DNA from: a virus
Virus record (IMG/VR): IMGVR_UViG_3300021375_000154
Span: 1 to 24,808 of that record
Direction: 5' to 3' (one strand)
DNA length: 24,808 bases
The position numbers and the translations under genes are program-made. Below, piece after piece: positions 15,826 to 24,748 of this stretch (position 1 is the first letter of the stretch; each line of letters begins with the position of its first letter). The notes under the pieces are model-generated. The model was not told the DNA's origin, did no database searches, and worked only from the letters and a program-made list of their open reading frames with translations.

Positions 15826-16484
15826 AGCAACCTCGCACGTTCAGTTAGTTTATCAATGTCATTGTCGTAAGCAGACAGCACCTCGTCAAATAATTGTTGC
15901 TCACCTTCACAGTCTTTAAGTATCTTCTCTGCTTTCTTAGGTCCAATACCTCTTAATCCTGGAATGTTATCAACACGATCACCAGTTAGTATCTGCATAT
16001 AAAAGTTTCTTATGGCATCTTCTTCCTTTACATAATATAAATCTTGTTTAACAAAGTTGTAGTGCCAGCCACGTAACATGTCTAAGTCTTTATCAATAGA
16101 CATGACACATGACTGGTCTTCGGGTAACTCGTAGACAGCAATACCTATAGCATCATCTGCCTCTTGACCTTGAATTAATTCAAAGCCCCACTTGCTAACC
16201 AAGTATTCTCTAAGGGTGTCGTAGTGTACTGGTTTTCTGTTGTTAACTCTATTACCCTTGTAGTCTTGCTCAGTAGCAATCTTATCTCGGTAGTTTCCTT
16301 TACCTGTGATGTAGCCAGAGTAGGACTCGACACCTTGAACACTTAATAAGTTATCAATGAAGTGTCCCATCCTAGAGATAGCATACTTCTCTTCCTCTGG
16401 ATCATCAACAGAGAATCCCACACGATAGACGAGGATGTCCCCATCAATGAGGGCTTTGACATCCTGCATTGACGGGGTACTCAT
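15771..16484 (-). CDS. 5'-3' exonuclease / flap endonuclease (T7 gp6-like role)
   Basis: This 237-aa protein has the FEN/5'-nuclease metal ligands: D14 and D16 (LIDGDIL), the E108-A-D-D111 cluster, SIDKDLD (D131, D133) and GDRVDNIPG with D169 and D172, followed by the helix-hairpin-helix-type LRGIGPKKAEKIL that grips DNA. Such enzymes remove RNA primers and degrade host DNA for nucleotide recycling; T7 gp6 does both. Length fits stand-alone phage nucleases. The start overlaps the SSB stop (TAATG). Assignment to the family is secure; the balance of exo- and endonuclease activity is not visible. Confidence 0.9.
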   Translation of the reverse strand: MSTPSMQDVKALIDGDILVYRVGFSVDDPEEEKYAISRMGHFIDNLLSVQGVESYSGYITGKGNYRDKIATEQDYKGNRVNNRKPVHYDTLREYLVSKWGFELIQGQEADDAIGIAVYELPEDQSCVMSIDKDLDMLRGWHYNFVKQDLYYVKEEDAIRNFYMQILTGDRVDNIPGLRGIGPKKAEKILKDCEGEQQLFDEVLSAYDNDIDKLTERARLLWIRRQEKQLWKPPSNSQ

Positions 16485-16894
16485 TACAACGCTTCTTCTA
16501 AACTATCATCAAGAGCAGACTCGTCAGCATCGTATACAATCAAGTCAGTAATGACTAGCTTGTTGATACCTGCGGATACACCTGCCTTACCTTTGAACTG
16601 GTAAGCATAGGGCTTGATCCACGCTACTCCTTTTGATCCATTACCTACCTTTCCTGATACGCCTGAACCATCTGGCATCTCAGTCTTGATAGGAAACTTC
16701 TTAGATTTAGCTACAATATAGAAGCCTTTATCTTCCTTACGCTTCACCTCGATACCTTGATCCTCTAGTGCAGAGACTGCACCATCAGATAGGTTACACA
16801 AATCAACCTGATACTTCTCAGACATCTGGTTAGGTGTGTCAAGGAAAGCCCACATGATATCAGCTTTTACCTTTATTGCTTTTAAGTCTTGCAT
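16484..16894 (-). CDS. Single-stranded DNA-binding protein (T7 gp2.5-like)
   Basis: The 136-aa protein begins MQDLKAIKVKADIMWAFLD, with an OB-fold-like beta pattern (KYQVDLCNLSD, IEVKRKEDKGFYIVAKSKK, GVAWIKPYAYQFKGK). It ends in an acidic tail, YDADESALDDSLEEAL, the usual hook by which phage SSBs contact polymerase and primase-helicase. I chose the ATG at 16894 because AAGGAG (16902-16907) lies seven bases upstream and this gives the typical N-terminus. A longer frame from 16924 would add ten residues and overlap the polymerase gene. Its place between polymerase and 5' exonuclease supports the call. Confidence 0.8.
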   Translation of the reverse strand: MQDLKAIKVKADIMWAFLDTPNQMSEKYQVDLCNLSDGAVSALEDQGIEVKRKEDKGFYIVAKSKKFPIKTEMPDGSGVSGKVGNGSKGVAWIKPYAYQFKGKAGVSAGINKLVITDLIVYDADESALDDSLEEAL

Positions 16895-16905
16895 TTTACT
16901 TCTCC

Positions 16906-18546
16906 TTAGTGTGTTGTTGCCCAATTAGTACCTATCTTATACTCACCATCGAGTGGACAACGTAGCCCTAGTGTGAGTCCTGCTTCCTGAATTGCCTGAA
17001 CGCCAGCTTGACCTACAGATTCAGCAAGTTTTTCATTCGTTTCTATCTGCCATTCATCATGAACATTAGCTACAAATGAAGCATCCATTATAACACGATT
17101 TAGTTTAGAATGCAACAATACTAATGCTTGTTTCATTACTACTGCACCTGCTCCTTGTAGTAATACATTCAAGGCAGCGTGTGCTGATCGAACCATGAGC
17201 CTACGACCATCAAGACTAGGTAGCCAACCACGTTTAGCTAGTCTATCTACCTTCTGTCTCAGTGTCTTGAGTGCTGGTGTGTTGGCAAGGAAGCTATCGA
17301 TTAACTTCTTACCTTCACGTTCACCACCACCTACGATAGCACCTATCTTAGCTGGACCTGCACCATAAAGAAAAGCATATATAAAAGTCTTGGCTTGATC
17401 CCTGTTAGTAAGACCTGCTGCTTTCATGTTCTTAGTATGAATGTCACCACTCAGTATCTCGTTGGTGTACTCCTCGTCACGCATGTAGTGTGCAAGCATA
17501 CGTAACTCAAGACCACTAGCGTCTATACCTACCAGTACATTACCATCCTCTACTGTCCAACACTCACGACACTCCTTACCAAACGGATTACCTACACGAG
17601 GAACCTGTGCAAGATTAGGTTTAGAATGAGTCATCCTACCTGTCACTGCTCCGTTGGTGATGATCTTACAGTGAACCCTGTCGGAGTTATCAGCATGGTC
17701 AATCCATGATTCAACTTGAGCCACCCGTTTCTGAACGAGTAAGTATTCTGCAATGAGTTTAGCTTCAGGTAAGTCAATAGTTTGTAATACTTTCTCATCA
17801 ACGATCACCGATCCTTTCTCTGTGTGCTTAGTTGGTTGCCAACCCAGAGTCATCAAGCGTTCTGCTATCTGCTTACGTGATCCAGGATTGAACACTTCTA
17901 CTTTGTCCTTGAGTCTGTTGCCTGTCTTCTCGCTATACCTACGTGTTACAATAGGTCTGAAAACTTCTTGTAGTTCTTCCTCAATTTCGTGTAGTCTTTT
18001 CCTCCAACCTGCCAAAAGGAATAACGCTTTCTTAACATCGAGCTTGAATCCTTTCTCTTCCTGTTGCTTAACAATAAGAGCGACTTGATGTTCGAGATCC
18101 AATGAGTTACCCCATACCAATAGATCATTGCTAAGACGCTTATGTAGTGTCTCGGTAACGGAAACATCTTGTTTACAATAGCTGACCATCTCTTCTGTAA
18201 GCCCACCATCAAAGTCTTTGAAGTCATCCTTGTAGTTTCCTAGTCTGTGACCCCAAGCTCTGAGTGAATGTCCTCCCTCGATGATTGGGTTCAGTAGTCT
18301 TGACATGACTAGCGTGTCTGATATTTTGTGATGAGTTGTATCGATACCCCATACCTTTTGTAGCACAGGCTGATCGAACCCTATGATATTGTGTCCTATC
18401 AATGTGCTTCTTTCTGTTAGGTATTCTGCTAATTGATCTTTCTCTTCCCATACTCTTACCTCCTTAGTTGATAAGTCTTTAGTAACAGCACACCAGATAT
18501 GAGTGGCTGTGCTGTTAGTCTCAATGTCTATGATGATTGACCTCAT
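16906..18546 (-). CDS. DNA polymerase, family A (T7-like) with 3'-5' exonuclease
   Basis: This 546-aa replicative polymerase carries the proofreading motifs IIDIET (D7, E9), IGHNIIGFDQP and YCKQDVSVTE. The polymerase motifs follow: TGRMTHSKPNLAQVP; motif A GIDASGLELRM (D342); motif B NRDQAKTFIYAFLYGAG (R382, K386, Y390); and motif C NVHDEW (H496, D497, E498). The tyrosine four residues after the motif B lysine matches T7 Y526, equivalent to E. coli F762. It is about 160 residues shorter than T7 gp5. I see no obvious thioredoxin-binding insertion, but alignment is needed to be sure. The start overlaps the primase-helicase stop (ATGA). Confidence 0.95.
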   Translation of the reverse strand: MRSIIIDIETNSTATHIWCAVTKDLSTKEVRVWEEKDQLAEYLTERSTLIGHNIIGFDQPVLQKVWGIDTTHHKISDTLVMSRLLNPIIEGGHSLRAWGHRLGNYKDDFKDFDGGLTEEMVSYCKQDVSVTETLHKRLSNDLLVWGNSLDLEHQVALIVKQQEEKGFKLDVKKALFLLAGWRKRLHEIEEELQEVFRPIVTRRYSEKTGNRLKDKVEVFNPGSRKQIAERLMTLGWQPTKHTEKGSVIVDEKVLQTIDLPEAKLIAEYLLVQKRVAQVESWIDHADNSDRVHCKIITNGAVTGRMTHSKPNLAQVPRVGNPFGKECRECWTVEDGNVLVGIDASGLELRMLAHYMRDEEYTNEILSGDIHTKNMKAAGLTNRDQAKTFIYAFLYGAGPAKIGAIVGGGEREGKKLIDSFLANTPALKTLRQKVDRLAKRGWLPSLDGRRLMVRSAHAALNVLLQGAGAVVMKQALVLLHSKLNRVIMDASFVANVHDEWQIETNEKLAESVGQAGVQAIQEAGLTLGLRCPLDGEYKIGTNWATTH

Positions 18547-23131: not shown

Positions 23132-23392
23132 TTATGCTTCGTCAGTTTGAGTGATGTTGAATACTGTGAAATATTTGGGAACTTGTGCCATCTTTAACTC
23201 CCCCGTCTTCTTGCTTCTCTTCTTGATTGAGACTACTCGCATGAGTCCAATTCCTTTTTCCCCTTTCCTTACCTGCCTCCCCACTTCCTGCGCTTGCCGA
23301 TAGGTTAAAAAGTGAGGGTCGTCGTATCCACTCATCGATAGAGCTACAAAGTTTTTTCCTGTATATGGTTGTTTAGTAACAAAATTAATCAT
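23132..23392 (-). CDS. Free-standing ArdC N-terminal-like domain (candidate anti-restriction)
   Basis: This 86-aa protein reads INFVTKQPYTGKNFVALSMS, HFLTYRQAQEVGRQVRKGEKG and YFTVFNITQ, which follows the ArdC N-terminal (ssDNA-binding, DUF1738-type) layout: NP.TGK.YRG.N at the start, T..QA...GG.V.KGEKG in the middle, Y.VFN..Q at the end. Full ArdC proteins are about 300 aa and add a zinc metallopeptidase domain with HExxH; that part is absent here and the frame closes cleanly. ArdC protects incoming DNA from host restriction, so a very early position fits. Whether the N-domain alone is active is unknown. GGAG lies upstream of the ATG with usual spacing. Confidence 0.7.
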   Translation of the reverse strand: MINFVTKQPYTGKNFVALSMSGYDDPHFLTYRQAQEVGRQVRKGEKGIGLMRVVSIKKRSKKTGELKMAQVPKYFTVFNITQTDEA

Positions 23393-23395
23393 TTT

Positions 23396-23845
23396 TTAGT
23401 TCTCCTTTTTGGTTATTAGATATGCTTCATCTACTATAAATTGTGGTGCTTTGCCTCTATACTTCTTGTCAATCCAATCATTGTATACCCCATCAACTAG
23501 GCACGCAACGTGATGAATTGAGCCGTGAAAGCTAACAAAATATGTACCCTTGTTGTACTTCTTGGCGAATTGGTTAGCGTTTAAGCCCGTCATTCTAACT
23601 ATGCCGTTACGCATAACCCGCAAAACGCCCGTATGCATACGTTTAGCTTCATATCCAAAAGCGTTTAAAGCCCTTTCTTGCACGGCTCGCATTGTCCCTT
23701 TTCTAAACGTGCGTCCGTGCTTTTCTAACTTACGTTGACAACGTTTGAATGAATAGCCTGTAACGGTAGCTAGTGCGTTGACTGCACAGAAACTAATATC
23801 GCCTAGCTTATCACCTGCTTTTCTAAGAGTTAAATAATCTTGCAT
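23396..23845 (-). CDS. First early gene: papain-fold / C39-like protein (putative cysteine peptidase)
   Basis: The 149-aa protein has the Cys-helix start DISFCAVNALATVTGYSF (Cys20), a GRTFRKGTM segment, and GTYFVSFHGSIHHVACLVDG with His111/His112 followed by VYNDWID with Asn122/Asp123. The order Cys, His, Asn/Asp with C.V.ALA and H...C/A.VDG contexts is that of papain-fold peptidases and their inactive relatives in phages. A peptidase or deamidase-type activity against host proteins is plausible but unproven. I chose the ATG at 23845 because AAAGGAGG stands seven bases upstream; the frame is open further to a TTG at 23977 (193 aa), without a ribosome site. Confidence 0.65.
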   Translation of the reverse strand: MQDYLTLRKAGDKLGDISFCAVNALATVTGYSFKRCQRKLEKHGRTFRKGTMRAVQERALNAFGYEAKRMHTGVLRVMRNGIVRMTGLNANQFAKKYNKGTYFVSFHGSIHHVACLVDGVYNDWIDKKYRGKAPQFIVDEAYLITKKEN

Positions 23846-23860: not shown

Positions 23861-23970
23861 TGTTAATGCGTTCAACGCTCTATTATCTAAAACGCTGAAG
23901 GCATTAGCCTCACACTTTAACGAATTTCTAAGGGCTTTCAGTCTCTCAAGCGTTCGCGCCCCTTTGTTAT

Positions 23971-24324: not shown

Positions 24325-24443
24325 GCGGGTTATACCTTATATATATACGGGCGAGATATGATATGTTATAACATAACAATGATACAGTATCACAAAAGAT
24401 AGGCTAAGTCATTGATTTTAAAGGCTTTTGACGATCGGGTCAT

Positions 24444-24458
24444 GGGGTAGGCTACCCC
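24444..24458. repeat. Perfect palindrome GGGGTAG-G-CTACCCC
   Basis: A 7-1-7 perfect inverted repeat lies in the gene-free right end, followed by CCTACC which repeats part of the right arm. With a one-base centre it is better suited to a DNA-bound dimer or cruciform than to an RNA hairpin. No family of operator is recognised. Confidence 0.6.
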
Positions 24459-24491
24459 CTACCGAAACGCCCAAAGCCCGTAGAGGGGCTG

Positions 24492-24504
24492 TGAGAGCCT
24501 CTCA
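24492..24504. repeat. Perfect palindrome TGAGAG-C-CTCTCA
   Basis: A 6-1-6 perfect inverted repeat is centred 47 bp from the GGGGTAG palindrome, overlapping an alternative longer hairpin (GAG-GG-GCT ... AGCCTC around 24483-24501). It lies 17 bp before the second GTTATAAC-type repeat. Role unknown; it may be part of an origin or control region. Confidence 0.5.
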
Positions 24505-24555
24505 GAGGGTATCGCCTAATGATATGTTATAACATCACATCCACGAACAGGCTAG

Positions 24556-24572
24556 ATGAGAATGATTCTCAT
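24556..24572. promoter_or_regulatory. Fur-box-like palindrome ATGAGAAT-G-ATTCTCAT
   Basis: A perfect 8-1-8 inverted repeat matches the 7-1-7 form of the Fur site (TGAnAATnATTnTCA), the operator of the bacterial ferric uptake regulator. It lies between the second and third GTTATAAC-type repeats. Fur binding by a host protein is inference; the same sequence could serve a phage regulator. Confidence 0.45.
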
Positions 24573-24721
24573 TAGCATTTATAAATGATACGTTATAACA
24601 TAACATCCCCACCCCCTCGATCTTTTTTAAATGATACGATATAACATAACATGAGGGTACATAGCCGATACACACACAAAGGCTAATGAGACTCACTCAA
24701 CTATGTAAATGCTAATGCAAA

Positions 24722-24748
24722 TGAGAATGATTCGTGTTTAGATTCTCA
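24722..24748. repeat. Second, split copy of the TGAGAAT element
   Basis: TGAGAATGATTC (24722-24733) repeats the left 12 bases of the Fur-like box, and ATTCTCA (24742-24748) repeats its right arm after a spacer. AAATGCTAATG just to the left is the inverted copy of ATTAGCATTT, which follows the box at 24556. The two elements are therefore arranged as diverged inverted copies about 150 bp apart. Confidence 0.5.

What the first reader, a model, noticed from the sequence alone, without database searches (positions are those of the whole stretch)
23132..23845. Likely anti-host pair: stand-alone ArdC N-domain and papain-fold protein
The first two genes of the early transcript encode a domain resembling only the ssDNA-binding half of ArdC and a protein with a Cys-His-Asn/Asp arrangement. 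ArdC is an anti-restriction protein whose peptidase half is missing here; the neighbouring gene might supply a peptidase of a different fold. A split, two-protein version of an ArdC-like function would be new. The pairing is inference from adjacency.
Basis: inference. Interest (0 to 1): 0.6.

Follow-up and report, generated by a model that had tools for sequence, protein, structure and literature searches.

The report
Lone ArdC DNA-binding domain beside cysteine hydrolase
The first two early genes of this uncultured phage do encode the DNA-binding half of an anti-restriction protein and a protease-like enzyme, but related phages swap them independently, so they look like two separate tools against the host rather than one split machine.

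Summary
Both structural guesses hold. P1 (23132-23392, minus, 86 aa) is a stand-alone ArdC N-terminal domain: Pfam ArdcN E 5e-16; model pLDDT 95; R388 ArdC Z 12.3, 1.6 A over 85 of 86 residues. P2 (23396-23845, minus, 149 aa) has a papain-like, C39-peptidase-like fold and belongs to phrog_3754, of unknown function. The pairing is not supported. P2 is kept in this phage group, but P1 follows it in only 5 of 22 contigs, one an exact copy. The same P1 (90%) sits beside a P2 only 33% identical where primase is 99% identical. Best reading: two independent early cassettes, a DNA-occluding anti-restriction domain and a hypervariable host-targeted cysteine hydrolase. ArdC's peptidase was dispensable in the published test (PMC7213743), so no replacement is needed. 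GGCC avoidance (0 seen, 21.9 expected) shows restriction pressure. By-product: 25 complete stand-alone ArdcN genes; 10 lie just upstream of a HExxH protein, a more literal split ArdC.

The parts
23396..23845 (-). P2: papain-like cysteine hydrolase, 149 aa, phrog_3754, triad Cys20-His112-Asp123; first gene of the early cluster
23132..23392 (-). P1: stand-alone ArdC N-terminal (ssDNA-binding type) domain, 86 aa; second gene of the early cluster
23864..23906 (-). conserved leader hairpin upstream of the P2 ribosome-binding site
   Evidence: 3 pairs with changes on both sides in 10 sequences
16484..16924 (-). gp2.5-like SSB; bears on the rival that P1 is the replicative SSB
   Evidence: phrog_112 E 3.4e-5

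Best explanation
P1 and P2 are two independent early host-takeover cassettes at the head of the early gene cluster. P1 is a stand-alone ArdC N-domain. Shown: its fold. Inferred: it coats single-stranded or partly melted stretches of the entering and replicating phage DNA and hinders restriction enzymes by occupying their substrate, with no peptidase needed. P2 is a papain-like cysteine hydrolase. Shown: predicted fold and invariant Cys-His-Asp. Inferred: it cleaves or deamidates a host protein early in infection; its sequence is exchanged wholesale between otherwise near-identical phages while the active site stays fixed, as expected if its target or the host varies. They share a gene cluster but are not two halves of one ArdC.
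For: P1 fold and family. P2 fold and triad. P1 follows P2 in 5 of 22 P2-bearing contigs, window and its exact copy included. P1 90% but P2 33% identical in L050, primase 99%; P2 34% in L045, L047, L048, L049 with primase 99-100%. P2 family without ArdcN nearby in ACP17, PAK_P1, M5.1, P26059A, DC31. Restriction pressure: GGCC 0 vs 21.9 expected; 6-mer palindromes 183 vs 387 (2000 sets of 64 random non-palindromes never fell below 0.80). The phage has its own SSB-like gene. ArdC E229A is still antirestrictive (PMC7213743, passages).
Against: No activity was tested. P1 lacks ArdC's first helices, so binding may be weaker than ArdC's. Where P1 is present in this phage group it is always directly after P2 (5 of 5 contigs), which a pair would also give. 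GGCC avoidance is as strong in close relatives without P1, so it does not tie P1 to restriction. Foldseek found no solved structure for P2 at E 1e-3 or better (best 0.035); the fold call rests on VIA Z, the element order and the triad.
Confidence: 0.55

Rival explanations
1. Split ArdC: P1 tethers P2 to DNA and P2 acts as the peptidase half, so that protection needs both.
For: Directly adjacent, 1-4 nt apart, in all 5 contigs that carry P1 in this group; in T4-like contigs stand-alone ArdcN also lies within 475 nt upstream of a peptidase-like HExxH protein in 10 contigs; Rad4 carries a papain/transglutaminase-type domain beside ArdC-N-like domains (PMC7213743, passages).
Against: P2 without P1 in 17 of 22 contigs; the same P1 with a 33% identical P2; none in 5 named phages opened; ArdC peptidase dispensable (PMC7213743); 11 of 25 stand-alone ArdcN loci have neither neighbour by these profiles.
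Confidence: 0.15
2. P1 is an accessory ssDNA-binding or recombination protein for phage replication, not an anti-restriction factor.
For: Fold binds ssDNA in ArdC and related domains serve in DNA repair (PMC5512222, passages); it lies in the DNA metabolism cluster.
Against: A gp2.5-like SSB is present; P1 is absent from most close relatives with near-identical replication genes.
Confidence: 0.18
3. P2 is not a host-directed protease but a phage-protein processing enzyme, an amidase or deamidase, or an enzyme of the cell-to-phage transition with another substrate.
For: Papain-like folds include amidases, transglutaminase-like and deglycinating enzymes (rows; PMC10318531, passages); no substrate is known.
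Against: Early position and allele swapping do not suit a structural-protein maturase; no catalytic site other than Cys-His-Asp is conserved.
Confidence: 0.25

Closest known systems
ArdC of plasmid R388 (PDB 6i89, 6sna)
   Same: P1 has the fold of residues 42-130 of its ssDNA-binding domain, 39% identical, with the VFN motif
   Different: no first helices (profile 1-36), no HExxH metallopeptidase domain; phage early gene, not plasmid gene
Full-length ArdC-like phage proteins (phiCbK gp225, Brevundimonas phage Bambus and others)
   Same: same ArdcN domain
   Different: in 6 of 6 records opened of 33 hit the gene is 280-343 aa; the two aligned here carry a HExxH domain
C39 peptidase domains (ComA, PCAT1)
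   Same: best structural matches of P2, Z 10.1-10.5 over 112-115 residues
   Different: no ABC transporter fused, 12-14% identity, no C39 profile match; the C39 glutamine before the Cys (recalled) is not conserved in the family alignment
phrog_3754 (PAK_P1 gp42, M5.1 gp114 'peptidase', ACP17, P26059A)
   Same: P2 is a member (8.5e-10); same triad; in PAK_P1 and M5.1 also in a cluster upstream of primase/helicase
   Different: no ArdcN nearby in the five phages opened; function unknown
Rad4/XPC
   Same: a beta-hairpin domain resembles P1 (Z 4.2, 44 residues); the protein also has a transglutaminase-type domain (PMC7213743, passages)
   Different: one eukaryotic repair protein, enzyme domain inactive; weak Z

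Membership tests
ArdC anti-restriction protein | ArdcN (PF08401) ssDNA-binding domain | tested here: met
   59.4 bits against cut-off 22.6; Z 12.3 to 6i89
ArdC anti-restriction protein | C-terminal HExxH metallopeptidase domain | tested here: not met
   86 aa, ends after the ArdcN domain; alignment A5
ArdC anti-restriction protein | antirestriction activity | not testable with these tools
   needs plating or conjugation assays
Papain-like cysteine hydrolase fold | Cys at the N-end of a helix, then strands carrying His and Asn/Asp | tested here: met
   C20 opens helix 20-29, H112 opens strand 112-117, D123 follows strand 120-122; triad 22 of 22
Papain-like cysteine hydrolase fold | structural match to solved members | tested here: met
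   35 chains at Z 8 or more; listed rows at Z 8 or more are C39, PeiR, staphopain, Josephin and other papain-like folds; Foldseek best only E 0.035
Peptidase family C39 (PF03412) | sequence match to the family profile | tested here: not met
   no C39 family among Pfam matches up to E 5
phrog_3754 | profile match | tested here: met
   8.5e-10, positions 16-135 of 145; 6 of 6 relatives scanned also match
Two-component split ArdC | the two genes are inherited together | tested here: not met
   P1 in 5 of 22 P2 contigs; allele mismatch
Two-component split ArdC | physical or functional interaction | not testable with these tools
   no complex prediction or assay on hand

The most novel reading that the evidence does not exclude
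Phages use a family of stand-alone ArdC-N proteins of about 85-95 aa as DNA-tethering modules that work with whichever peptidase-like protein is encoded next door, a HExxH protein in T4-like phages and a papain-like one here, so that ArdC is only the fused form of a modular, split anti-host system with exchangeable peptidases.
Probability: 0.1. Interest if true: 0.65.

Novelty: new variant of a known kind. Interest (0 to 1): 0.4.

Why it matters
It separates what the ArdC N-domain does from what its peptidase does: there are natural versions of about 86-95 aa with no peptidase attached, in several different phage contexts, so the published inference that DNA binding alone gives antirestriction can be tested with a minimal protein. 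It also flags phrog_3754, present in laboratory Pseudomonas phages such as PAK_P1, as an early cysteine hydrolase family with a fixed triad, swapping alleles and no known target.

Tried and rejected
Tried without result: PADLOC and NCBIfam for P1 and P2 (NCBIfam gave one match far below cut-off, 12.1 against 228 bits); phmmer of P2 against PDB sequences (best E 0.66); tblastn of P2 and of L011's P2 against named phages (no match); a profile-based rescan with A1, which gave the contigs already known; a genome-contig scan for ArdcN with A2, where 64 stretches matched a pattern and none passed tblastn; Rfam (none; one chance-level match).

Considered and rejected: P1 as the phage's main SSB (one search shows a gp2.5-like one, and P1 is absent from most relatives); P2's TTG-started 193-aa ORF as the true gene (AGGAGG before ATG 23845; extension not kept); restriction-site avoidance as evidence for P1 itself (as strong without P1); Rad4 as a homologous two-domain precedent (Z only 4.2, enzyme domain inactive). 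Pfam DUF4224 and DUF4090 matches to P2 are below their cut-offs and were dropped.

Print claims: searches listed no paper that, by title or abstract start, describes this pair, a stand-alone phage ArdC-N protein as such, or a function for phrog_3754; one paper notes a PF08401 protein in a SAR11 phage genome (PMC6811365, passage). Of the listed papers I read passages of seven only (PMC5512222, PMC7213743, PMC7824862, PMC10318531, PMC12753301, PMC10196503, PMC6811365). The library lacks most subscription journals.

Full report
What is there. The window is a 24.8-kb virus record with genes on the plus strand in its first half and a minus-strand cluster of DNA metabolism and early genes: ribonucleotide reductase, metallophosphoesterase, RusA-like resolvase, exonuclease, gp2.5-like SSB, family A polymerase, primase-helicase, endonuclease VII-like protein, then a run of small genes. 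The two genes in question head that cluster: P2 (23396-23845, 149 aa) then P1 (23132-23392, 86 aa).

P1. Pfam ArdcN matches at 5.2e-16, covering profile positions 37-123 of 123. phmmer finds R388 ArdC at 1.1e-11. The model (9-sequence alignment, pLDDT 95.0) matches ArdC 6i89 by Foldseek at 2.3e-7 and by VIA at Z 12.3, rmsd 1.6, 85 residues; Rad4 and XPC follow at Z 4.2 and 3.7. So it is the ArdC ssDNA-binding domain minus its first helices and minus the whole peptidase domain. This is no truncation by the record's end: the gene is complete and its copies in three other, non-identical contigs have the same length at 90-92% identity.

P2. It belongs to phrog_3754 (8.5e-10). The model (pLDDT 81.2, pTM 0.76) gives PCAT1 peptidase Z 10.5 (rmsd 3.1-3.2, 114-115 aligned), ComA peptidase Z 10.3, PeiR 9.6, staphopain 8.9, Josephin-2 8.2. 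Foldseek points to the same fold but weakly: no solved chain at E <= 1e-3, best 0.035 at probability 0.98, 5xe9 at probability 1.00. In BFVD 15 phage proteins match at E <= 1e-3; none has a named function apart from one labelled thioesterase. In an 18-sequence alignment the only invariant columns are C20, G44, R45, G50, H112 and D123; adding PAK_P1 gp42, M5.1 gp114, P26059A_0109 and DC31_41 leaves C20, R45, G50, H112 and D123 at 22 of 22. That is the papain-type order, with Cys opening a helix and His opening a strand.

Are they a pair? I collected contigs that encode P2 (scans), P1 (12, 100) and the primase (37; 126 relatives, best 80 kept). Profiles for P1 and P2 were run on every ORF held, and gene order was read from P2 to the primase. 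P2 is found in 22 distinct contigs, window included (19 close; 3 distant: L081, L088, L115). P1 follows it in 5: the window, a contig 100% identical in these genes, L005/L058, L007/L059 and L015/L050. In the other 17 the next gene is something else: a KLHH-type 104-126 aa protein, a 93-aa protein, phrog_5643, a g6-like gene and others. The same small genes recur in different orders, so this is a modular early region. In five named phages with the P2 family (ACP17, PAK_P1, M5.1, P26059A, DC31) the ArdcN profile finds nothing in the stretches opened.

The allele pattern is the sharpest test. In L050 primase is 99% identical to the window, P1 90%, but P2 only 33%; its leader upstream of P2 (same contig, L015) is 81% identical over 469 nt. 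In L045, L047, L048 and L049 P2 is 34% while primase is 99-100%. P2 is thus replaced as a unit between near-identical phages, with its catalytic residues intact, and P1 does not follow. A tight complex would be expected to move together. The counter-observation is that P1, when present in this group, is always directly behind P2 (5 of 5), but these contigs share gene order by descent and are not independent.

Stand-alone ArdcN elsewhere. Scan 100 kept 32 loci: 25 carry a complete stand-alone ArdcN ORF (86-111 aa as called, the longer ones by upstream starts), 3 are full-length ArdC-like (291-334 aa), 4 run off a contig end. Of the 25, four have P2, ten have a HExxH protein that starts -1 to 475 nt downstream, in T4-like contigs next to a DnaB-like helicase, and eleven have neither by these profiles; one of those contigs (L018) has a DUF932 gene downstream. 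The HExxH protein of L016 matches phrog_10499, matches no Pfam peptidase above cut-off, and among its 80 kept relatives of 161 only L016's own contig shows a strong ArdcN in the stretches fetched. So a literal ArdcN-plus-HExxH arrangement exists in some T4-like phages, and is also a minority state. The six named-phage ArdcN records that I opened, of 33 hit, are all full-length ArdC-like genes.

How it probably works. R388 ArdC prefers ssDNA and overhangs; its E229A metal-site mutant still acts, and its authors propose that binding alone hinders HsdRMS (PMC7213743, passages). A lone ArdC-N is therefore expected to be able to work without a peptidase. The window shows the imprint of restriction: GGCC is absent (0, expected 21.9 from shorter words) and palindromic hexamers are at 0.47 of expectation, against a minimum of 0.80 in 2000 sets of random non-palindromic hexamers. 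Close relatives without P1 avoid GGCC as well, so this shows the pressure, not P1's role. P2's early position, with family members also upstream of the primase in PAK_P1 and M5.1, and its exchange between near-identical phages suit an enzyme aimed at the host. Jumbo-phage authors argue likewise for patchy phage peptidases (PMC7824862, passages). In polyvalent proteins four peptidase superfamilies are listed and papain-like is not among them (PMC5512222, passages).

Verdict. The two domain guesses are right and were good reading; the split-ArdC inference is not supported by co-inheritance and is not needed mechanistically, though it is not excluded.

Noticed in passing
window 23864-23906, minus strand: Hairpin of 6+12 pairs just upstream of the P2 ribosome-binding site, kept in 10 sequences with changes on both sides at 3 pairs, also in phages that carry a different P2 allele; the 377-nt leader folds at z -2.80.
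   Followed up: partly
window 24351-24652: Five copies of a 29-nt repeat (most ATGATAYGTTATAACATAACA, with a palindromic core) upstream of the early genes; look like operator or iteron sites.
   Followed up: no
window 24553-24575 and 24714-24733: ATGAGAATGATTCTCATTAG resembles a Fur box (consensus recalled, not from a call); a second partial copy lies further on.
   Followed up: no
whole window and relatives: GGCC is absent (0 vs 21.9 expected) and hexamer palindromes are halved; GGCC is also 0 in several close relatives.
   Followed up: partly
L216:2501-3780, L222:2501-3601, L016:4968-5785: T4-like contigs with a stand-alone ArdcN gene between a DnaB-like helicase and a HExxH protein (L016's is phrog_10499): a literal two-gene ArdC-like arrangement.
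   Followed up: partly
L010:473-992: P2 is broken by a frameshift in this contig, though the rest of the region looks intact; could be a sequencing error.
   Followed up: no
L018:5257-6228 and L115:4335-5189: DUF932 genes lie downstream of a stand-alone ArdcN in L018 and downstream of a P2-family gene in L115.
   Followed up: no
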